From positions 1 to 40,777 of the forward strand of contig JAOUCS010000019.1 of the NCBI GenBank assembly GCA_029859645.1: a DNA stretch of 40,777 nt, in the 5' to 3' direction. The notes below the pieces were generated by a model. The model saw only the letters and a list, made by a program, of their open reading frames with translations, was not told where the DNA came from and did not search any database. The position numbers were made by a program, and so were the translations under genes. This stretch comes from Lysobacterales bacterium (GTDB taxonomy: Bacteria > Pseudomonadota > Gammaproteobacteria > Xanthomonadales > SZUA-36). Positions 5,303 to 14,793 of this stretch are shown here, piece after piece (the stretch's first letter is position 1; each line of letters opens with the position of its first letter).

Positions 5303-7138
5303 ATGTGTGGCATCGTTGCTGCGTCAACCCATCGCCAGGTCAGTGAGATTCTGATATCCGGCCTGCGTGCACTTGAATACCGGGGATATGACTCGGCCGG
5401 GATCGCGGTCCAGCAGGACGGCAGCCTGCTGCGGCTGAGAACCCAGGGCAAGGTGAACGACCTGCAGGCCCTGCTGGAGGAGACACCCCTGAATGGCGTC
5501 TGTGGTATCGCTCATACACGCTGGGCCACGCACGGGGTGCCCAATACCACCAATGCACATCCGCACCTCTCCGATGATACGGTCGCGCTGGTGCACAACG
5601 GGATTATCGAAAATCACGAAGAGCTGCGCGACGAATTAAAGTCCAGCGGTTACCGTTTCAGCTCAGATACAGATACCGAAGTAATGGTCCACCTTGTGCA
5701 TCGCTCGATGCGTGAAGGCTTTGACCTGTTTGCTGCAGTTCGCGAAATGGTAAAAAAGGTCCGGGGCGCGTTCGCGATAGCGGTAACCAGCGCTTCCGAG
5801 CCGGGTGTAATCATCGGCGCCAGGTCCGGCAGCCCACTGGTGCTGGGTATCGGCTTCGACGAGCACTACCTGGCTTCGGATGTGCACCCGCTTCTGACCG
5901 TGACCAACCGCTTTGTCTACCTGGAAGAAGGCGATGTGGTGCGCCTGGATACGGACCGCTACCAGATCAGAAATCGCGCGGACGAGTTGGTGGACCGGCC
6001 GGTCAAGGAAGCGGACCTGGCGGCTGATGCCGTCCAGCGCGGACGTTACCGGCACTACATGCAAAAGGAGATTTTTGAGCAACCACAGGCCATTGCCGAA
6101 ACCCTCGAGGGCAGGATCGGAACGAACCGCGTGCTGCCCAACATATTCGGAGTGGGGGCCGATGCCGTACTGGAGCAGGTCAGGCAGGTCCATATCGTCG
6201 CCTGCGGCACCAGCTACCATGCCGGCCTGGTCGCCCGGTACCAACTGGAAGAACTGGCCGGTATTCCGTGCACCGTGGAAGTGGCCAGCGAGTACCGCTA
6301 CCGGCACCCGGTGGTTCCGGCGCAGACACTGTTCGTCGCAATCTCGCAATCGGGCGAGACCGCGGACACACTGGCCGCGTTACGCCATGCCAGGAACAGC
6401 GGTTACCTGGCTGCAATGGTGATCTGCAATGTGCCGGAATCTTCGATCGTCAGGGAAGCCGATCTCGTACTGATGACGCGAGCCGGACCCGAAATCGGAG
6501 TCGCGGCGACCAAGGCATTCACGACCCAGCTGGTTGCTTTGCAACTACTGGTGCTGGAACTGGCCCGCCTGGCCGGTCATGCAAAGGACAGCCAGATCGA
6601 GGCCTGGGCGGAGGACTTACACCAGTTGCCCGGACTGGTTACAAAGGCACTTGGCCTTGACGCAGAGATCGAGGAGCTGGCGGAGCAGTTCGTGGAAAAA
6701 CACCATGCCCTGTTCCTGGGTCGTGGCAGCCATTACCCGATCGCCATGGAAGGCGCGCTGAAATTGAAGGAAATTTCCTACATTCATGCAGAGGCCTACC
6801 CGGCGGGAGAATTGAAGCATGGCCCGCTGGCGCTGGTCGACCATGACATGCCGGTGGTCGCAGTAGCTCCCAACAACCGGCTGCTGGAGAAGCTGATCAG
6901 TAATATCGAGGAAGTCCGTGCCAGGGGCGGGGAAATGTTCGTCATTGCCGATGCCGAAGCGGTCTCCAGTCTGAAAACACGCCACGGAAGAGTGATCAAG
7001 CTGGAAACGGGCGGTGCATTGCTGGCTCCGGTCGTGATTACCGTGCCCCTGCAATTACTGGCCTACCACGTGGCGGTCCTTCGCGGGACTGATGTGGATC
7101 AACCCAGGAACCTGGCCAAGTCCGTCACTGTAGAATGA
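5303..7138 (+). CDS. glmS: Glutamine-fructose-6-phosphate aminotransferase (isomerizing)
   Basis: Converts fructose-6-phosphate and glutamine to glucosamine-6-phosphate, the first step of amino-sugar synthesis in the cytoplasm. The 611-residue protein has the N-terminal glutaminase nucleophile Cys2 (MCGIVA), the YDSAG and HTRWATHG motifs of the glutaminase domain, and two SIS sugar-isomerase domains with CGTSYHAG, ISQSGETADT and ESYIHAEAYPAGELKHG-like motifs. It ends in LAKSVTVE, the conserved C-terminal tail carrying the ammonia-channel lysine. The 3-bp gap to glmU and 3-bp gap to exbD suggest co-transcription. There is no room for a glmS ribozyme between glmU and glmS. Confidence 0.97.
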   Translation: MCGIVAASTHRQVSEILISGLRALEYRGYDSAGIAVQQDGSLLRLRTQGKVNDLQALLEETPLNGVCGIAHTRWATHGVPNTTNAHPHLSDDTVALVHNGIIENHEELRDELKSSGYRFSSDTDTEVMVHLVHRSMREGFDLFAAVREMVKKVRGAFAIAVTSASEPGVIIGARSGSPLVLGIGFDEHYLASDVHPLLTVTNRFVYLEEGDVVRLDTDRYQIRNRADELVDRPVKEADLAADAVQRGRYRHYMQKEIFEQPQAIAETLEGRIGTNRVLPNIFGVGADAVLEQVRQVHIVACGTSYHAGLVARYQLEELAGIPCTVEVASEYRYRHPVVPAQTLFVAISQSGETADTLAALRHARNSGYLAAMVICNVPESSIVREADLVLMTRAGPEIGVAATKAFTTQLVALQLLVLELARLAGHAKDSQIEAWAEDLHQLPGLVTKALGLDAEIEELAEQFVEKHHALFLGRGSHYPIAMEGALKLKEISYIHAEAYPAGELKHGPLALVDHDMPVVAVAPNNRLLEKLISNIEEVRARGGEMFVIADAEAVSSLKTRHGRVIKLETGGALLAPVVITVPLQLLAYHVAVLRGTDVDQPRNLAKSVTVE

Positions 7139-7141
7139 TCG

Positions 7142-7546
7142 ATGAAGAGAAGGCATCGCATCGATGATGAAGCCGAGATCAACATCACACCGATGTTGGA
7201 TATCGTATTCATCATGCTCATTTTTTTCATCGTAACGACTTCTTTCGTGAAAGAGACAGGCCTTGAAGTGTCCCGTCCGTCCAATGCGCCGCCCAAGGAA
7301 ATCAAGCACGATAAGGGCCCCATAGTGGTCAGGATCGACAGCTCCGGCCTGATCAGTGTGAAGGGACGGATTCTCGAAGCCGGGGCTGTCGAGGCCAACC
7401 TGGAGCGTGAGAAAGCGGAAAAGCCCACCTCGCCGCTTATTGTTGCAGCGCACCCGGCAGCGGATACTGAAGCCCTGGTCACTGTACTCGACGCCGCCAG
7501 GGCGGTCGGCGTCGAATCGGTCAACGTGGCGACCGGTTCACAATAG
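7142..7546 (+). CDS. exbD: ExbD/TolR-family biopolymer transport protein
   Basis: Inner-membrane stator-type protein that, with an ExbB/TolQ partner, uses the proton gradient to drive TonB or Tol work across the envelope. The 134 residues contain a short basic N-terminus, the family signature EINITPMLDIVFIMLIFFIV with the proton-carrying aspartate (Asp20), and a periplasmic alpha/beta domain. It starts 3 bp after glmS with no ribosome binding site of its own, so it is likely translated by coupling. No exbB, tonB or tolQ gene is in the window, so it is an orphan here, which is unusual because exbB and exbD normally sit together. The last 9 bp overlap the convergent ycgL gene. Confidence 0.92.
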   Translation: MKRRHRIDDEAEINITPMLDIVFIMLIFFIVTTSFVKETGLEVSRPSNAPPKEIKHDKGPIVVRIDSSGLISVKGRILEAGAVEANLEREKAEKPTSPLIVAAHPAADTEALVTVLDAARAVGVESVNVATGSQ

Positions 7547-7807
7547 GTGGCGGGTTATTTCTTCTTCCACCGGAAGTTTTGGCGGCAACTGAAGGTAATA
7601 TCCGGATTCCCCGAGGCTTTCGAGCACCTTGACGACATCGACCCGGGCCAGCTTCCTGTCTGCGGACAGTTCAAGGCGCAAAACGAAGGTTGCCTCGCCA
7701 AACTGGTATCGCAGTTCTTCCGGCAAATCGTCGAAAGACAGCGTTTCTGCCAGGTACAGATAAGTTTCTGACTTTTTTTCTGAGCGAAAAACTTTGCAGG
7801 CCGTCAT
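7538..7807 (-). CDS. ycgL: YcgL-domain protein
   Basis: Small cytoplasmic protein (89 residues) of the YcgL family. It shows the family landmarks in order: an N-terminal CKVFRSEKKSETYLYL, a central LPEELRYQFG, and the diagnostic GYYLQLPPKLPVEE near the C-terminus. The length matches the family. Function is not established, although the family is largely restricted to gammaproteobacteria, which supports the taxonomic reading of this window. The gene is convergent with exbD and overlaps its last 9 bp. Upstream lies the divergent start of the TIR protein gene, so the 70 bp between them must hold both promoters. Confidence 0.9.
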   Translation of the reverse strand: MTACKVFRSEKKSETYLYLAETLSFDDLPEELRYQFGEATFVLRLELSADRKLARVDVVKVLESLGESGYYLQLPPKLPVEEEITRHLL

Positions 7808-7877: not shown

Positions 7878-9956
7878 ATGCGATACAAGGCGTTTATCAG
7901 CTACAGTCATTCTGATCGCGATTGGAGCGCCTGGCTTCAGCGGTCGCTGGAAGGTTATCGTGTGCCCAAAAGACTGGTGGGCAGCAAGGGTGAGTTTGGC
8001 CCGGTGCCGCAGCGCCTGACGCCCATATTCCGCGATCGCGAAGATCTGCCGTCCGCTTCTGACCTGACCTCAAAGGTCGGAAAAGAACTGGAGTCCTCCG
8101 AAGCGCTGATCGTGATCTGCTCGCCGGCCGCCGCCCGCTCGAAGTGGGTCAACGAAGAAATCCGCTTATTCAGGAGACAGGGTCGCGAAGACCGGATATT
8201 TGCACTGATTGTTGACGGTGACCCCCAGCCGCAAGACCCGGATCAGCAATGTTTTCCTTCAGCGCTTTTGGTCAATGCTGACGGCAGCCCGTGCGAACCC
8301 CTGGCGGCAGACGCACGCAAGTGGGCGGATGGGAAACTTCTCGCCAAGCTCAAAATTGTTTCAGGCATCCTCGGTATCCGTCTTGATGAACTGCGCCGGC
8401 GAAATATGCAGCGTAGCCGGCGAAACCGGACTATTGCCGGTGTTTCCGCGCTTGCGATGATCGTATTGACGGCCACACTCGTATTTACCACCTTGAGTTC
8501 CCAGAAAGCGGCGCGCCTGCAACGCACGAACACCGAGGAGCTGTTGAGTTACATGCTCGGCAACCTGAAGCGGCTGGATCCTATCGTCGGCCTTGAGGTA
8601 CTCGACCGCGAAGATGCTGAACACCAGGCTTATGTTCGGTCGCTTGGGTTCGATCAAATGGACAATACACAGCTGATCGAAAAAGGCATGGCGTTGCGAG
8701 AAGAGGGCCTGGATGATCACGATCGCGGTCAATTGAAAGAGGCGCTGGGGCACTTCAGCCAGTCCCGCGCGGCTTTTGTCGAGTTACACCAGCGCGAGGG
8801 CAGCACCCGCCAGGCTCTGTTTGAATTAGGGCAGGCCGAGTTCTGGGTGGGATACGTTTATTTAGACATGGGAAAATTGGATGAGGCGGAGGAACGGTTT
8901 ACCCGCTACGGAGTCATTTCCCGCCGACTGGTGGATGCTTATCCCAATGACGCTGCCATGGTGATGGAACTGGCCTATACACTAACCAACCTGGGAGCGG
9001 TGGAGCGTGCACGTACCAATCCGGATTCGGACAGGGCTTTGCGGCTGACACAGTCAGCGCTGCAATACAACCAGGTGGCCCTGGTGTTGGATCCGGGCAA
9101 TGATTCCTACCGTGAAGGACTGGCAGCCAAGTTGGCATTCATGGCCGATGCATGGATGGAAAGTTGCGACCTTGGTAAAGCCATCGATTTCAGACAGCAG
9201 AATGTCGATATTGCCAGGGAATTTTACCAACGATCACCGCAGAATACCGATTTGATGCTGGAACTCGCTTTCTCCCTGTCTGGCCTGGCAGCGGTGCAAA
9301 GGCGAATTCCGATTACAGACCAGGCGTTGGACAATCTGCGCTATTCGCGTGACCTGCTGCTCGAAGCTTACGAAGCAGATAATCAGAACCCGGTGTTTAG
9401 ACTGCGGGCCATGATGCGCGATCTCCGGATATTGAAAATACGGGTTTGGGAAGAATCCCCGGAAGATATCTGGCAGGAAATGATCGCATTCACACAGGAG
9501 ATGGAGCGCATCGAGAGTTCTGCTTCGCTGCCTGAATTTGGTATGAATATCGAGTACGCGCTTTTCTTTTACGATGTATCGCTGGTCGCGTCGGAATTGA
9601 ATAAACCCCAGGAAGCTGAATGGTATTTGACGGAATCTATGGATCGCCTGGCTGCGCTGGTCAAAGAACAGCCTGATTACCGGTCAGCCAGGAACATGCT
9701 GGCCAAGGTCTGGATCGAATACTGGTTTCGGCATGGCAAGCTGCCAGGCGAGGAGGCTGCAAACCTGCTGCAGGATTACCTCGTTGATCCGGAAGAAGCG
9801 ACCAGCTGTGACGATGCAAGCCTGGCGGCCAGGCTGGAAATCATGCGCGGTAACAAAACCCTGGCAAAGAACTATACTTCTTACTTACTGGGGAAAGGTT
9901 TTTTTGAACCGGAGTTCGTAGCATTTTGTAAAAAGCATGCTTTATGTGACTATTAG
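7878..9956 (+). CDS. TIR-domain protein with one membrane helix and C-terminal TPR-like region
   Basis: Probable signalling enzyme: TIR domains of this bacterial type cleave NAD+ and can make cyclic ADP-ribose-like messengers. The ATG at 7878 (692 residues) puts KAFISYSHSD right at the N-terminus; a GTG at 7869 would add 3 residues. The TIR domain (about 1-120) shows FRDREDLP in the loop region and CSPAAARSKWVNEEI, with Trp90 followed by Glu93 and Glu94; Glu94 sits at the position of the catalytic glutamate of NAD-cleaving TIR domains. A very basic stretch (RRRNMQRSRRNR) precedes one hydrophobic helix at about 185-206, so the TIR should be cytoplasmic and the rest periplasmic. Residues about 265-450 form helical TPR-like repeats. 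It leads a three-gene module with the next two genes. The NADase role and topology are inferred. Confidence 0.85.
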   Translation: MRYKAFISYSHSDRDWSAWLQRSLEGYRVPKRLVGSKGEFGPVPQRLTPIFRDREDLPSASDLTSKVGKELESSEALIVICSPAAARSKWVNEEIRLFRRQGREDRIFALIVDGDPQPQDPDQQCFPSALLVNADGSPCEPLAADARKWADGKLLAKLKIVSGILGIRLDELRRRNMQRSRRNRTIAGVSALAMIVLTATLVFTTLSSQKAARLQRTNTEELLSYMLGNLKRLDPIVGLEVLDREDAEHQAYVRSLGFDQMDNTQLIEKGMALREEGLDDHDRGQLKEALGHFSQSRAAFVELHQREGSTRQALFELGQAEFWVGYVYLDMGKLDEAEERFTRYGVISRRLVDAYPNDAAMVMELAYTLTNLGAVERARTNPDSDRALRLTQSALQYNQVALVLDPGNDSYREGLAAKLAFMADAWMESCDLGKAIDFRQQNVDIAREFYQRSPQNTDLMLELAFSLSGLAAVQRRIPITDQALDNLRYSRDLLLEAYEADNQNPVFRLRAMMRDLRILKIRVWEESPEDIWQEMIAFTQEMERIESSASLPEFGMNIEYALFFYDVSLVASELNKPQEAEWYLTESMDRLAALVKEQPDYRSARNMLAKVWIEYWFRHGKLPGEEAANLLQDYLVDPEEATSCDDASLAARLEIMRGNKTLAKNYTSYLLGKGFFEPEFVAFCKKHALCDY

Positions 9957-9982
9957 GACGTTTGATAATCGGAGAACTTAAG

Positions 9983-10507
9983 ATGACAAGTGGAAAAAAA
10001 ATAACAGGTCTGGGCTTTTTGCTGCTGTCCAGCCTCGTGTTAAGTACTTCAGCGTGGGCAGTCAATGTCACACTCGAAGTCGATGAAAGTGTTAACCCGC
10101 CAAGTTTGTATGTCGTCAACAACAATGCCCAGTGTGCAGGTGGACCGATCGATTGCATCGAAGTTGAAAGTGGTTCGCAGCCGCACATGATGTTCAAGCT
10201 CCTGCGGGCCTGCCAGCCGGGGGGGCCGTTATGGGGTCTCAGCGGGTTCTATGTCATGGAAGAGGAGAAAAACTGGCCTGCGCCTTTGGACAGCGGCACT
10301 GCAGGCGAGTTTTGTGCTAATTCGGGTACGGGTAAAGTTGACATGAACAGCTGCGGTAACAATCAGAGAGATGATCAACTCAAGATCAAGAATTACAACC
10401 GCACGCCAGGTACCGTCTACTACATGGTCGAGGCAAAACATTGCACAGACTCGGGTCGGAGCCCCATCCACCTGGATCCTGAAATCCGGAACAGGGGGGG
10501 CAACTAA
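9983..10507 (+). CDS. Small exported six-cysteine protein of unknown function
   Basis: A 174-residue protein I cannot assign to a family. The start at ATG 9983 is set by GGAGA at 9971-9975, seven bases upstream; a TTG at 9962 in frame is not needed. The N-terminus is a clear signal peptide (lysine pair, GLGFLLLSSLVLSTSAWA, then VNVTLEV). The mature part has exactly six cysteines spread along its length, suggesting three disulfides in the periplasm or outside the cell. Two further features are a run of small residues around GPLWGLSGFYVMEEEKNW and a C-terminal tail with no second membrane helix. It lies 26 bp after the TIR gene and 15 bp before the SLOG gene, so it is probably co-expressed with them and may meet the predicted periplasmic TPR part of the TIR protein. 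Confidence 0.75.
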   Translation: MTSGKKITGLGFLLLSSLVLSTSAWAVNVTLEVDESVNPPSLYVVNNNAQCAGGPIDCIEVESGSQPHMMFKLLRACQPGGPLWGLSGFYVMEEEKNWPAPLDSGTAGEFCANSGTGKVDMNSCGNNQRDDQLKIKNYNRTPGTVYYMVEAKHCTDSGRSPIHLDPEIRNRGGN

Positions 10508-10522
10508 GCCGGTTCATCGTTT

Positions 10523-12208
10523 ATGCAACTCAGCATCGGTGTTACAGGTCACCGTGATCTGGTAGAACAGGAATGGCCTGCGCTCGAGCGACGAGTGCAG
10601 GCTTTTTTTGATGAGCTGGAAAAACATTTTCCCGATCTTGAGCTCGAGTTGCTCAGCGCTCTGGCGGAAGGTGCGGATCGCCTGGTTGCATCGGTCGCTT
10701 TGGAACGCGGCATTCCCATAATTGCCGTTTTGCCCATGCAACAATCGGAATATGAGTCTGATTTTGAAGCGGCTGAATCCCTCGAAGAATTCCGCTTGAT
10801 GCTGGGCCGGGCGCAGCAGGTCATTGAATTACCGAACATGGCCGGCAAGGTGCAGATGGACCGGGACAGCCAGTACGCGCAATTGGGCGTGTTTATCTCC
10901 AATCATTGCCAGGTGCTGCTGGCCTTGTGGGATGGCAGATTGTCCGACGCGCTGGGCGGAACCGCCCACGTAGTGCTTTATCATACGACCGGCCTGATGG
11001 AAGGTTACCAGGGCGACCTGTCACCGGCCAGGTTGCTGGCAGACAATGAAAATGACCTCGTTTTCCATATCGTCTGTTCCCGCGATAGGCCGGATGGGCG
11101 ACCAATTGGCGGTCTGTCGCCGCTGGAATCCGCCTGGTTCAGCAGTCGCGAGAACGGTAAGCGCACTGTCGATATGCCGGAGGCTTACCGCCTGCAACTG
11201 CAGCGCATGGAGCGCTTTACCCGGGACTGGAAAGACAAGCAATCAATCGTTCGGAACCGAAGCTCCAGCCTGCTCAACGGTAAGCCCGATCTGCCACTGC
11301 CTACCGGTGCGGAACAAACCAACCACTTGTTCAGGGCCGCGGACGGCCTCGCCATTCATTATCAGCAACGCGTAAACAGCAGCCTGCGGGCGATCCATCT
11401 GCTGGCAGTCATGATGGGCCTGGTTTTCCTCGTATATTCGGAATTTGACGGTCCGGGTTACATGGTGCTGACGTTCCTGGGTTTGTTTTTCGGCGGCGTG
11501 GCCATTCACATTATCGGTGGGAGCCGCGAATGGCACCGTAAATACCTGGATTACCGGGCCCTGGCTGAAGGTCTGCGGGTACAGTTTTACTGGAATCTGT
11601 CCGGTGTGGTCGATACCGGGTCCGCAGGGTTTGCCTATGACAACTTCCTGCAAACTCAGGACGTGGACCTGGGCTGGATCCGGCATGTCATGCGCCAGGC
11701 CAGCATGAGCCGCGCGCGCGGCCAGTCACCCGATCCGGGCTGGGTACCCTGGGTCATCGCTGAATGGATCGGTGGCCCCGGAAAAGGCCGTGGACAACTT
11801 TCCTATTACTCCCGCAAGCAAGTACACAATACATCCCGTTTTCGCAGAACCCAGATGCTGGGCAACCTGTGTCTTTGGGCTGGCATTACGATCGCCATCC
11901 TGTTGTATTTGCTGGGCAACGAAGGCGACGAGGAACAACGCCGCATCCTGCTGGTGTTGATGGGTGTTCTGCCGTTGGTTGCCGGTATCTGGGACGCATA
12001 TGCCCACAAGAAAGCGGAAAAAGAGCTGATCAAGCAATACGGTTTCATGAGTCGCGTGTTCGGCAAGGCCAGGAAGCTGCTCGATGAATCGGGCGATCTC
12101 CAGTTTCAGCGCCAGGTGCTGAAAGCGCTTGGCCAGGCGGCGCTCGATGAAGGCGCCGAATGGTTGTTGATGCACCGCGAACGACCGCTGGAACACGGCC
12201 GGCTCTGA
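10523..12208 (+). CDS. SLOG-domain protein with four membrane segments (SLATT-like effector architecture)
   Basis: A 561-residue membrane protein. Residues 1-150 form a SLOG (Rossmann-like nucleotide-binding) domain: IGVTGHRD at 5-12, ALAEGADRL at 46-54, and VLLALWDG at 131-138, the three motifs expected for ligand or nucleotide binding. Two hydrophobic pairs follow: about 290-305 with 313-331, and about 446-465 with 474-490, each pair followed by a helical stretch (REWHRKYLDYRALAEGLR and KKAEKELIKQYGFMSR). This matches the two-helix SLATT effector pattern, here doubled. SLOG domains sense TIR-made messengers in Thoeris-type systems, so this may be the pore-forming effector for the TIR protein two genes upstream; that role is inference. 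No clear ribosome binding site precedes the ATG. Confidence 0.82.
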   Translation: MQLSIGVTGHRDLVEQEWPALERRVQAFFDELEKHFPDLELELLSALAEGADRLVASVALERGIPIIAVLPMQQSEYESDFEAAESLEEFRLMLGRAQQVIELPNMAGKVQMDRDSQYAQLGVFISNHCQVLLALWDGRLSDALGGTAHVVLYHTTGLMEGYQGDLSPARLLADNENDLVFHIVCSRDRPDGRPIGGLSPLESAWFSSRENGKRTVDMPEAYRLQLQRMERFTRDWKDKQSIVRNRSSSLLNGKPDLPLPTGAEQTNHLFRAADGLAIHYQQRVNSSLRAIHLLAVMMGLVFLVYSEFDGPGYMVLTFLGLFFGGVAIHIIGGSREWHRKYLDYRALAEGLRVQFYWNLSGVVDTGSAGFAYDNFLQTQDVDLGWIRHVMRQASMSRARGQSPDPGWVPWVIAEWIGGPGKGRGQLSYYSRKQVHNTSRFRRTQMLGNLCLWAGITIAILLYLLGNEGDEEQRRILLVLMGVLPLVAGIWDAYAHKKAEKELIKQYGFMSRVFGKARKLLDESGDLQFQRQVLKALGQAALDEGAEWLLMHRERPLEHGRL

Positions 12209-12239: not shown

Positions 12240-12743
12240 TCAATCGTCCAATTTGGGTATCACCAGTTCCTGGCCGGGAAATATCTGGTCCGGATTATCG
12301 AGTAAACCGGTATTGGCCTCGAAGATTTTCATGTACTTCGAACCTTCGCCATAGTGCTGCTCAGAAATTTTCCACAAGGTGTCGCCCGATTGCACGGTGT
12401 AGGTAGCGCTTTCCGCGGCGGCTCCGGTCTCTATGGCAGGCTCATCCCGTTCCGAGACCTCCGGCGCCGTCGTGACCGCATCAGTTTCAGGAGTGGCCAC
12501 GGTCATATTGTCCTGAACCGTGTTGATCCCGGGTGCGGTGGCCAGGATATCGAGGATTTTCTGCCGGTCGTTCTCGTGGGCAATTTCGCCGGAAACGGTG
12601 ATCGAGGCCGTTCCAAATCCAAAATGCAATCCACTGGGGTCAAGACCCGCATTCCTCAAAAGCTGGCTGGGGCTGGTGGTGACGTCACTTTCGCTTTCGT
12701 CCCTGGAACCGAAAGCATTCTTGATTGAATCGAAAATACCCAT
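12240..12743 (-). CDS. BON and LysM domain protein (Kbp/YgaU-like)
   Basis: A 167-residue protein of the YgaU/Kbp type, in which a BON domain precedes a LysM domain; the E. coli relative binds potassium. The N-terminus (MGIFDSIKNAFG) is not a signal peptide, as in that family. The BON region spans about residues 22-85 (VSGEIAHENDRQKILDILATAPG), followed by a low-complexity Thr/Glu/Ala linker, then LysM at about 113-164 (YTVQSGDTLWKISEQHYG, NPDQIFPGQELVIP). A good ribosome binding site (GGAG) precedes the ATG, and a strong GC-rich hairpin lies just upstream. It is convergent with the SLOG gene, 31 bp away, and lies downstream of acs on the same strand. Confidence 0.88.
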   Translation of the reverse strand: MGIFDSIKNAFGSRDESESDVTTSPSQLLRNAGLDPSGLHFGFGTASITVSGEIAHENDRQKILDILATAPGINTVQDNMTVATPETDAVTTAPEVSERDEPAIETGAAAESATYTVQSGDTLWKISEQHYGEGSKYMKIFEANTGLLDNPDQIFPGQELVIPKLDD

Positions 12744-12843: not shown

Positions 12844-14793
12844 CTAGCGATTCATCCGGTGGTCAACCAGCTGCTGGACGACTTCAGGTTCTGCAAGCGT
12901 GGATGTGTCACCCAGGTTACCGTAGTCGTTCGCGGCAATTTTACGCAGGATGCGACGCATGATTTTGCCAGACCGGGTTTTTGGCAGCCCTGGAGCCCAC
13001 TGCAGAAGGTCCGGTGTGGCAATGGGACCGATTTCCTTGCGAACCCATTTGCGCAGCTCGGCCCGCAACTCTTCGGTCGGCTCCTCACCCTTGACCAGCG
13101 TAATGTAGGCGTAAATACCCTCACCTTTGATGTCGTGGGGATAACCCACGACCGCAGCTTCGGCAACTGCCTCGTGTGCCACCAGGGCGCTCTCGATTTC
13201 AGCGGTACCCAGGCGATGTCCGGAGACGTTGAGGACATCATCTACGCGACCGGTAATCCAGTAATAGCCGTCCTCGTCGCGGCGCGCGCCATCACCGGTG
13301 AAATAGGTGCCGGGGATCGTGGAGAAATACGTATCGACGAACCGCTGGTGATCGCCGTACACCGTCCGCATCTGTCCAGGCCAGCTGTCAGTTATGACCA
13401 GCAAGCCTTCGGTGGCTCCCTCGGTTGGCATGGGGTTACCTTTTTCATCGTAGAGTGCAGGCATGACGCCCGGGAGGGGCTTGGTAGCGGAGCCGGGTTT
13501 CAGATCAGTGGCGCCAGGTAGCGGGCTGATCAGGATGCCGCCGGTTTCCGTTTGCCACCAGGTATCTACGATGGGGCAACGGCCGTCACCCACGACGTGG
13601 TAGTACCAATCCCAGGCTTCGGGATTGATCGGCTCTCCCACCGAGCCTAAAAGCCGCAGGGACTTGCGGGAGGTGGCCTTGACCGGTTCTTCACCTTCAC
13701 GCATCAGGGCGCGAATGGCGGTTGGGGCCGTGTAACAGATGTTTACATCATGCTTGTCGCAGACTTGCCAGAACCTGCTGGAGTTCGGGTAATTTGGTAC
13801 GCCTTCGAACATCATGGTCGTGGCGCCGTTGGCCAGGGGCCCATAAACGATATAGCTGTGGCCGGTCACCCAGCCAACATCGGCGGTGCACCAGTAAATA
13901 TCGCCGTCGTGATAATCGAACACCACTTCATGGGTATAGGAAGCGTATACCATGTAGCCGCCGGTGGTATGCAGAACACCCTTGGGCTTGCCGGTCGAAC
14001 CGGAAGTATAGAGTATGAACAGGGGGTCCTCGGCCTTCATTTCCTCTGCCGGGCAGACTGCATCCACAGTTGCTGCCTCATCCTCGTACCAGTAGTCTCG
14101 CCCTTCTAACCAATTGACATCGCCACCGGTGTTGCGCACGACGATGACGGATTTAAGGCAATCCGTTACGCCGTCGATTTTGCAGGCAGCATCGACATTG
14201 GCTTTCAGCGGCACAATGCGGCCACCGCGCAAACCCTGGTCAGCTGTAATCACCGTGTTTGAATCGCAATCGATTATGCGGCCTGCCAGCGCATCCGGTG
14301 AAAAACCTCCAAAAACAATGGAGTGCACCGCGCCGATTCGGGCACAAGCGAGCATGGCAACGGCGGCTTCGGGAATCATCGGCATGTAAATAGTGACCCG
14401 GTCACCTTTGCTGACGCCGCGTTTTTTCAGAACATTGGCCATTTTGCCAACACGCTCGTGCAATTCTTTGTAGCTGATGTGAGCGTCGCGCGCCGGATCA
14501 TCTCCTTCCCAGATAATGGCGGTCTGGTCACCACGCGTATCCAGGTGCCGGTCGACGCAGTTGTAACACGCGTTCAGAACACCGTCCTCAAACCAGCGGA
14601 TATGCAGATCTGCCTTGTCGAATGACACGTCCTTGATTTTGTTAGGGAATGTAAACCAGTCCAGCCGCTTGGCGGTTTCGGCCCAGAATGCCTCGTTGTT
14701 ATCTACGGATGACTTGTAAACGCGCTCATACTCGTTTGCATCGATATACGCGCGTTCCTTAAATGATTCGGGTACGGGGTATAAATTGCTCAT
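12844..14793 (-). CDS. acs: Acetyl-coenzyme A synthetase
   Basis: Activates acetate with ATP and CoA to acetyl-CoA through an acetyl-adenylate, allowing growth on or scavenging of acetate. The 649 residues match the family length. Visible motifs are IWEGDDP, the AMP-binding loop [24 protein letters not shown] and [20 protein letters not shown]. The C-terminal [17 protein letters not shown] contains the lysine that is commonly inactivated by acetylation in this family. It is transcribed divergently from the patatin gene with about 150 bp between them. The LysM gene lies 100 bp downstream, separated by a GC hairpin. Confidence 0.97.

What the first reader, a model, noticed from the sequence alone, without database searches (positions are those of the whole stretch)
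8430..10507. Predicted periplasmic TPR region of the TIR protein next to an exported cysteine-rich partner
A strongly basic stretch before the single helix of the TIR protein predicts the TIR inside and about 480 TPR-like residues outside. The next gene encodes a small exported protein with six cysteines. This suggests an envelope sensor: the exported protein or a ligand binds the TPR side and switches the cytoplasmic TIR. Most described bacterial immune TIR proteins sense inside the cell.
Basis: inference. Interest (0 to 1): 0.62.

Follow-up and report, generated by a model that had tools for sequence, protein, structure and literature searches.

The report
Toll-like bacterial receptor with exported partner
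Three neighbouring bacterial genes look like an envelope alarm: a membrane protein with a TIR enzyme inside the cell and a sensor outside, an exported disulfide-rich partner, and a predicted nucleotide-gated membrane protein.

Summary
The TIR protein (ATG 7878) has one helix (8430-8486) after a basic stretch, then 489 TPR-like residues. The next gene (9983-10507) encodes a protein with a Sec-type signal and six mature cysteines.

Comparison supports the outside placement. K+R is higher on the TIR side of the helix in 31 of 31 TIR proteins collected. Four TPR cysteines are kept in 29/31, 28/30, 27/28 and 27/28. The mature cysteine number is even in 31 of 32 partners.

A third gene (10523-12208) carries a SLOG fold plus four helices. 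It occurs in 28 of 39 family genomes; the TIR gene stands beside it in 23 of 28. And the partner folds like SO1698 (DP-EP, a self-cleaving peptidase; Z 10.2), with the DP site in 30 of 32 but Asp37 aligned to Cys. True DP-EP genes stand by Trans_reg_C-nSTAND1-TM-TPR genes in 21 of 21 loci read.

Best reading: a Toll-like transmembrane TIR receptor whose NAD-derived signal acts on the SLOG protein. Binding, signal and immune role are inferred. Against it: several related systems have partners without signal peptides.

The parts
7878..8330 (+). TIR domain, predicted cytoplasmic; E94 (8157-8159) in the WVNEE motif aligns with a Glu of plant TIR L6
   Evidence: Pfam TIR_2 1.2e-13 and ThsB_TIR 1.6e-7, both over cut-off; E94 invariant in 30 of 30; aligned to 3ozi L6; the catalytic role of that Glu is recalled
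8394..8429 (+). basic stretch (residues 173-184) before the helix
   Evidence: sequence; K+R higher on this side in 31 of 31
8430..8486 (+). single transmembrane helix (residues 185-203)
   Evidence: hydropathy
8487..9953 (+). TPR-like region (489 aa), predicted outside; conserved Cys430, 644, 684, 690
   Evidence: TPR_16, TPR_14 hits below cut-off; TPR structures by profile; Cys columns 29/31, 28/30, 27/28, 27/28
9983..10060 (+). signal peptide of the exported partner
   Evidence: sequence; hydropathy script
10061..10504 (+). mature exported partner, beta sandwich related to DP-EP (SO1698), six cysteines
   Evidence: AF2 pLDDT 95; Foldseek E 5.7e-5; VIA Z 10.2, rmsd 2.5 over 108; hhalign 81 percent
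10475..10480 (+). Asp-Pro of the DPxIxN motif, at the place of the SO1698 self-cleavage site
10523..11212 (+). SLOG-fold domain of the third protein (about residues 1-230)
   Evidence: AF2 pLDDT 86 for the whole model; VIA YpsA 2nx2 Z 15.2, DprA 11.2, ShosA 10.4; Pfam YAcAr 3.6e-4, below cut-off
11378..12001 (+). two helix pairs (TM at residues 286-304, 314-332, 446-464, 475-493), SLATT-like
   Evidence: NCBIfam SLATT_3 4.8e-5 and SLATT_1 3.5e-5, both below cut-off; hydropathy
10523..12208 (+). third gene, SLOG-SLATT-like protein
   Evidence: in 28 of 39 family genomes

Best explanation
The three genes form one envelope-to-cytoplasm signalling unit. The TIR-TM-TPR protein sits in the inner membrane with the TIR inside and a fast-evolving, disulfide-stabilised TPR superhelix in the periplasm. 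The exported partner, a disulfide-bonded beta sandwich of the DP-EP fold, is its extracytoplasmic co-sensor or ligand; in other members of the family it looks like a lipoprotein or is anchored. A change at the envelope (phage adsorption, envelope damage or a released ligand) alters the partner-TPR complex and brings TIR domains together. The TIR cleaves NAD+ and makes ADP-ribose-type nucleotides. The SLOG domain of the third protein binds that nucleotide and its four membrane helices permeabilise the inner membrane, causing arrest or death. Shown here by computation: gene unit, fold assignments, conserved TIR Glu, charge asymmetry, cysteine pattern. Inferred: disulfides, partner-TPR contact, NADase product, SLOG binding, pore, immune role. 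The layout resembles Toll and Toll-like receptors (outside sensor, one helix, TIR inside) feeding a Thoeris-like nucleotide relay.
For: SLOG-SLATT-like protein in 28 of 39 family genomes, 12 of 14 genera; partner in 25 of 39, all among the 28, plus G027 found locally. TIR beside SLOG in 23 of 28; 3 are at contig ends, and 2 (G007, G033) have TIR-partner pairs elsewhere. Empty site in 3 genomes without it: L219, L221, L222. TIR Glu94 invariant 30 of 30. Charge rule 31 of 31; even Cys in 31 of 32 mature partners. TPR Cys conserved; missing in L007, whose neighbouring protein lacks Cys and signal, and in L077, whose neighbour lacks a signal. TPR diverges faster than TIR: mean identity 0.29 against 0.60, 28 sequences. 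Co-divergence TPR-partner given TIR 0.26, 3 of 999 permutations; TIR-partner given TPR 0.10. Partner fold = SO1698. DP-EP genes beside Trans_reg_C-nSTAND1-TM-TPR genes in 21 of 21 loci read. Other exported partners (PEP-CTERM and more) beside distant TIR-TM-TPR genes: 11 of 29, against 43 of 164 background ORFs; PEP-CTERM over the Pfam cut-off in 5 of 9 tested. SLOG fold. SLATT as ADPr-regulated pore is a published prediction (PMC9503650, PMC7159879, passages).
Against: No binding, enzymatic or phenotypic data. SLATT and YAcAr matches are below curated cut-offs. DP-EP proteins in the nSTAND systems mostly lack signal peptides although the same TPR topology is predicted there, and the presumed partners in L007, L024 and L077 lack one too; so the partner need not meet the TPR outside in every system. 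L021 breaks the neat link of TPR cysteines with an exported partner: both its TIR proteins have four cysteines after the helix, while the small protein between them shows no clear signal. The unit sits at one chromosomal spot in most genomes; the SLOG protein has no full match in the plasmid collection (best cover 27 percent) and the TIR protein none in the phage collection, so it does not look like a mobile defence island. The exported-partner excess outside the family rests on related genomes and on my own simple signal score. No Cys pairing was modelled.
Confidence: 0.45

Rival explanations
1. A non-immune envelope sensor: the same proteins report envelope stress, a matrix polymer or a kin signal, and the SLOG-SLATT-like protein adjusts ion flow rather than killing.
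For: Mostly one chromosomal spot within one bacterial family; SLOG protein not whole on plasmids, TIR protein not on phages; DP-EP relatives pair with Trans_reg_C-nSTAND1-TM-TPR proteins, which suggests regulation; periplasmic TPRs that bind exopolysaccharide exist (PMC9384988, title in the listing).
Against: TIR plus SLOG or SLATT is the make-up of predicted and known immune relays (passages); presence and absence at an otherwise contiguous site and a fast-evolving sensor part fit conflict.
Confidence: 0.3
2. The exported partner is an inhibitor (or chaperone) that holds the receptor off; its loss, not its binding, is the trigger.
For: Constant pairing and co-divergence fit a guard as well as a ligand; some genomes carry two partners, one before and one after the TIR gene (L066, L143, L150).
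Against: Partner genes without a TIR gene nearby (L157, L159) and partner plus SLOG without a local TIR gene (L140) exist.
Confidence: 0.25
3. The partner is a self-cleaving peptidase as SO1698 is, and the released C-terminal nonapeptide or the cut form is what the TPR reads.
For: Same fold; DP motif at the cleavage site within one residue (VIA ranges) and exactly in hhalign; P and N invariant in 32, Asp in 30 of 32 by the tails.
Against: Asp37 of SO1698 aligns to a Cys and Ser114 to a variable residue; two members have His-Pro (L066 downstream one, L144).
Confidence: 0.15
4. The TPR region is cytoplasmic (helix not inserted, or a hairpin) and the exported protein is a bystander.
For: Signal-less neighbours in L007, L024, L077 and most DP-EP loci.
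Against: Charge rule in 31 of 31, 28 of 29 and 20 of 21 nSTAND-type proteins; conserved Cys in pairs in the TPR parts; linkage to exported, even-cysteine partners.
Confidence: 0.08

Closest known systems
Thoeris (ThsB TIR + ThsA SIR2-SLOG or TM-macro)
   Same: a TIR enzyme next to a protein with a SLOG fold; TM-macro ThsA is a nucleotide-triggered membrane effector (PMC11204291, abstract and passages)
   Different: here the TIR is itself membrane-bound with an outside TPR, an exported partner is part of the unit, and SLOG is joined to SLATT-like helices, not to SIR2 or macro
TIR-SLATT and SLOG-SLATT conflict systems (Burroughs and Aravind)
   Same: predicted nucleotide-signal-gated 2TM pore beside TIR; TIR-SLATT pairs in firmicute phages (PMC9503650, passage)
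   Different: two SLATT-like pairs fused to SLOG, plus a transmembrane TPR receptor and an exported partner; the 2015 paper itself is not held
DP-EP family, SO1698 (PF08985)
   Same: fold, DPxIxN tail, genetic pairing with an X-TM-TPR protein
   Different: 31 of 32 have an N-terminal hydrophobic signal or anchor and most have 4-6 cysteines; Asp37 is not kept; the Pfam model finds one of 32 at E 0.11 only
Toll / Toll-like receptors with Spaetzle
   Same: outside solenoid, one helix, TIR inside, secreted cysteine-rich partner (recalled)
   Different: TPR not LRR, opposite order along the chain, predicted enzymatic TIR feeding a nucleotide relay; no evidence of common origin of the receptor
TRPM2
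   Same: SLOG-fold domain plus membrane helices, ADP-ribose context (VIA Z about 8 on the SLOG part)
   Different: four helices with no channel fold shown; the long alignments have rmsd about 30 and mean nothing

Membership tests
TIR domain (Pfam TIR_2) | profile match over cut-off | tested here: met
   52 bits, cut-off 28
TIR NADase | catalytic Glu | tested here: met
   E94 invariant 30 of 30, aligned to a Glu of L6; activity itself not tested
Thoeris | ThsA with SIR2-SLOG or TM-macro beside ThsB | tested here: not met
   third protein has a SLOG fold plus SLATT-like helices; no SIR2 or macro hit in Pfam at E 0.1
Thoeris | ThsB-type TIR by profile | tested here: inconclusive
   Pfam ThsB_TIR 32.1 bits, over its cut-off 21.2; PADLOC ThsB E 0.017 and NCBIfam ThcB4 E 0.025, far under its cut-off
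SLOG superfamily | Rossmannoid SLOG fold | tested here: met
   VIA YpsA Z 15.2 over 160, DprA 11.2; Foldseek DprA and ShosA probability 1.0 but E 1.5e-3 and 2.9e-3
SLATT | profile over cut-off | tested here: not met
   23.8 and 23.4 bits against 41 and 45; two TM pairs at the matched places
DP-EP (PF08985) | profile over cut-off | tested here: not met
   1 of 32 members of A5 matches, at E 0.11; the window protein does not
DP-EP (PF08985) | fold and DP motif | tested here: met
   shuffled-column decoys score at most 6.1 against 37
DP-EP (PF08985) | self-cleavage at Asp-Pro with Asp37 and Ser114 (roles recalled) | tested here: inconclusive
   site kept, Asp37 to Cys and Ser114 not kept by alignment; cleavage not testable here
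Antiphage defence system | protects against phage | not testable with these tools
   no experiment

The most novel reading that the evidence does not exclude
Bacteria have true Toll-like receptors: transmembrane TIR enzymes with a periplasmic TPR sensor and a dedicated secreted, disulfide-bonded partner of the DP-EP fold, which pass an outside signal by an NAD-derived nucleotide to a SLOG-gated membrane pore. The same outside module (TPR plus DP-EP-type partner, or PEP-CTERM partner) is reused on other inside domains such as nSTAND transcription factors.
Probability: 0.33. Interest if true: 0.9.

Novelty: new variant of a known kind. Interest (0 to 1): 0.7.

Why it matters
If true, a bacterial TIR pathway reads the outside of the cell through one membrane helix, as Toll receptors do, and hands the message to a nucleotide-gated membrane protein. 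It also gives DP-EP proteins, which have a solved structure (SO1698) but no function known to me, a steady genetic partner: a Trans_reg_C-nSTAND1-TM-TPR protein in 21 of 21 loci read. That makes their role testable.

Tried and rejected
Partner as a known family: no Pfam or NCBIfam hit; over the 32 members Pfam gives only scattered weak hits. PDB by sequence: nothing useful for the partner profile (best E 0.4, antibody chains), none for SLOG-SLATT. A cysteine-less, signal-less protein beside the third TIR paralogue of the genome (L007) was first put into alignment A1 with the partner; its strong hit is a self-match. A profile without it does not find it at E 0.001; hhalign of L007+L024 gives 25 percent against the family and 0.3 percent against DP-EP. 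It is kept as possible only.

The class-wide partner search found none beyond the own genome (1 of 369), so by sequence the family is narrow. The weak hits L025 (E 0.014), L077 (0.046) and L024 (1.2) are next to TIR-TM-TPR genes but not significant alone; L028 (0.47) is not next to one. Rows left out: the 32 partners are those my ORF filter kept; further hits (L067, L147, L148 twice, L154) are not in the cysteine count. The 31 TIR proteins are those of 480 residues or more; one (L077) is from another family. The 29 distant TIR-TM-TPR ORFs come from 28 of the 41 loci; 13 loci had none that fitted my pattern. Of 11 genomes without SLOG, acs was found in 10; of the 11 acs regions read, three show the empty site, L220 was cut too short to tell, and the other seven lie elsewhere or at contig ends. 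The decoys are column shuffles, a mild control; only the 15 best parsed scores were printed.

Mobility: only the SLOG protein was searched in plasmids and only the TIR protein in phages; viral contigs was not scanned. Literature: no paper with TIR domain plus PEP-CTERM; none with TIR domain, periplasm, TPR, bacterial immunity and transmembrane together; SLATT, SLOG and TIR domain in 2; SLATT domain in 8; DUF1888 in 1, unrelated by its abstract; none listed with SO1698 or DP-EP; in the listings (10 of 51, 12 of 14, 15 of 204 shown) I saw no transmembrane TIR-TPR system by title or abstract. No preprint server is held. Of the papers named I saw passages (PMC7159879, PMC9503650, PMC11204291, PMC12948488) or only the listing (PMC9384988). 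That SO1698 cuts itself between Asp116 and Pro117, with Asp37 and Ser114 needed, is recalled; only shows chain ends that fit this.
Full report
What is there. The window genes run glmS (5303-7138), exbD (7142-7546), ycgL (7538-7807, minus), then three plus-strand genes with gaps of 26 and 15 bases: TIR-TM-TPR (7878-9956), exported partner (9983-10507), SLOG-SLATT-like (10523-12208); then a LysM gene (12240-12743, minus) and acs (12844-14793, minus) (the names glmS and acs are recalled from the sequence, not from a family search).

A conserved unit. A profile of the third protein finds it in 28 of 39 genomes of the window's family, 12 of 14 genera, and in 5 of 369 genomes drawn from the class, the own one included. 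A profile of the partner finds it in 25 of the same 39, all inside the 28; a local scan adds G027. I read the surroundings of all 28 SLOG genes. In 23 the TIR-TM-TPR gene is in the same run of genes (in G006 broken; in L148 placed by the coordinates). In three (L086, L138, L164) the contig ends first. In two (L140, L141) no TIR gene is there, but those genomes have TIR-partner pairs elsewhere (L161; L158 and L163). Orders seen are TIR-partner-SLOG, partner-TIR-SLOG, partner-TIR-partner-SLOG and partner-TIR-TIR-partner-SLOG. In 24 of 28 at least one of glmS, exbD, ycgL, lysM or acs flanks the unit; none was seen for L144, L152, L154 and L164. In three genomes without the unit the flanks meet: L219 (exbD-ycgL-lysM-acs), L221 and L222 (acs next to ycgL). 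So it is an accessory unit at a preferred place. Two partner genes stand alone (L157, L159). The own genome has a second TIR-partner pair on contig C141 (L006) and a third TIR-TM-TPR on C214 (L007).

Topology. The 20 residues before the helix carry more K+R than the 20 after it in 31 of 31 TIR proteins of the set and in 28 of 29 more distant ones. Four cysteines in the TPR part (window 430, 644, 684, 690) are kept in 29 of 31, 28 of 30, 27 of 28 and 27 of 28 sequences that have a residue there. The full-length exceptions are L007 and L077; their neighbouring small proteins lack signal peptides, and that of L007 also lacks cysteine. L021 does not fit this: four TPR cysteines in each of two TIR proteins but no clear signal on the small protein between them. 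After the signal, or after the lipobox Cys, 31 of 32 partner proteins have an even number of cysteines (21 with four, 9 with six, one with two; one has three). By my motif rule, 10 of 14 partners that precede a TIR gene look like lipoproteins, against none of 16 that follow a TIR gene or precede SLOG, and one of two orphans; 31 of 32 have a hydrophobic N-terminal stretch, L064 being the exception. This pattern fits disulfides in an oxidising compartment and hence a periplasmic TPR part. It is inference from sequence, not a measurement.

Sensor-like evolution. Among 28 TIR proteins the TIR part is 60 percent identical on average, the TPR part 29 percent. Over 25 TIR-partner pairs, TPR and partner distances correlate after removing the TIR distance (partial Spearman 0.26; 3 of 999 permutations reach it), while TIR and partner given TPR give 0.10. 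The effect is modest, and the permutation does not fully remove shared ancestry.

The partner is a DP-EP-fold protein. AlphaFold2 on 32 sequences gives pLDDT 95 for the mature chain. Foldseek's best hits are SO1698 of Shewanella oneidensis (E 5.7e-5). VIA-align puts SO1698 chains at ranks 1-10 (Z 8.2 to 10.2; rank 1: rmsd 2.5 over 108), then MakD (7.7), PixA and a Chitinophaga protein (6.9), above unrelated Ig-like folds (6.7 and less). In SO1698 chains whose aligned part ends at residue 116 the last aligned model residue is 140, and in the P117A chain it is 147 to 124; so the Asp139-Pro140 pair lies at the SO1698 cleavage site within one residue, and exactly in hhalign. hhalign of the two families gives 81 percent, P 1.2e-5; shuffled-column decoys score at most 6.1 and a reversed one 2.7, against 37. 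In that alignment Asp37 matches the Cys of the GC motif and Ser114 a variable residue, so self-cleavage is doubtful. Among 32 members Pfam PF08985 appears once, at E 0.11. So: related by fold and weakly by profile, not a member by the Pfam rule.

DP-EP proteins live beside TM-TPR proteins. I searched PF08985 in the class (3 of 369, one over cut-off) and in the order of that hit (27 of 295), and read 21 of those 27 genomes (L168 and L199-L218). In 21 of 21 a DP-EP gene lies on the same strand just after a gene for a protein of 1,051-1,141 residues (gaps from a short overlap to 287 bases); in L212 there are two DP-EP genes in a row. All 21 long proteins carry Trans_reg_C and nSTAND1 over cut-off; a TPR-type model reaches E 0.01 in all 21, but in L209 and L210 only TPR_P4H below its cut-off. 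Each has a called helix near residue 583-638; K+R is higher on its N side in 20 of 21 (one tie), and the C-terminal part has exactly two cysteines in 20 and three in one. Most of these DP-EP proteins lack a signal peptide; the second one in L212 has one. That is the main puzzle for a simple outside-ligand model.

Other exported partners. Of 29 distant TIR-TM-TPR ORFs, 17 have a same-strand neighbour within 150 bases and 11 have one that looks exported, against 43 of 164 background ORFs. Of nine neighbour proteins tested (Alteromonadales, Sphingomonadales, a Caulobacteraceae MAG), five pass the Pfam PEP-CTERM cut-off, two fall just below it and two show none. Genes matching the SLOG-SLATT profile lie in the same loci in L033 (other strand), L044, L049, L051 and L052. 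In L051 and L049 all three roles are present with a different exported partner.

The third protein. The model (pLDDT 86) has an N-terminal SLOG fold: YpsA Z 15.2 over 160 residues, DprA 11.2, ShosA 10.4, LOG enzymes about 9, TRPM2 8.0, EcThsA 6.9 (Z under 8 may mean only a common arrangement). Foldseek has nothing at E 0.001; DprA and ShosA come first with probability 1.0. In 28 sequences HR of GHR, WxG and GGT are invariant or, like the G of GHR, AxGxD and the D of WDG, nearly so. Two helix pairs follow; SLATT models match both places below cut-off. Published predictions take SLATT for an ADPr-derivative-regulated pore and report TIR beside SLATT (PMC9503650, PMC7159879, passages). In Thoeris the TIR product binds SLOG of ThsA (PMC11204291 and PMC12948488, passages).

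Mechanism and confidence. Topology: about 0.9. Functional unit: about 0.95. Partner touches the TPR part: about 0.6. TIR product gates the SLOG protein: about 0.6. Membrane permeabilisation: about 0.55. Immune purpose: about 0.5.

Noticed in passing
L168 2743-6398; L199-L218: A DP-EP (PF08985) gene stands just after a Trans_reg_C-nSTAND1-TM-TPR gene in 21 of 21 loci read, a genetic context for the SO1698 family.
   Followed up: partly
L212 5312-6215: Two DP-EP genes in a row after the long sensor gene, the second with a Sec-type signal peptide, the first without.
   Followed up: no
L007 217-4035 (own genome, contig C214): Third TIR-TM-TPR of the genome with a divergent 139-residue signal-less, Cys-less protein ending DPGIKNHD, followed by a gene that looks like an S41-type protease (by eye); a relative of the small protein precedes the TIR gene in L024 (Lysobacterales).
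   Followed up: partly
L008 1-2082 (own genome, contig C28): TIR gene cut by the contig end beside a protein with TPR-like, SLOG-like and cyclase-like stretches (by eye).
   Followed up: no
L064 3109-7585: In G006 the unit is broken by frameshifts or assembly errors: TIR in three pieces, second partner with an internal stop, SLOG protein with gaps.
   Followed up: no
L034, L035, L037, L038, L048, L049, L050, L051: TIR-TM-TPR genes next to exported proteins, many with a PEP-CTERM motif, in Alteromonadales, Sphingomonadales and a Caulobacteraceae MAG.
   Followed up: partly
L157 4449-5099; L159 2431-3123: Partner-type genes without a TIR gene nearby.
   Followed up: no
L080 5497-11076: SLOG-SLATT-type gene with a TIR-like ORF (VFVSYARADK...) close by in another family of the class.
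   Followed up: no
L042, L045: Two contigs are titled as MAGs of Klebsiella pneumoniae and Bordetella parapertussis; they served only in counts, and the labels look doubtful to me but were not checked.
   Followed up: no
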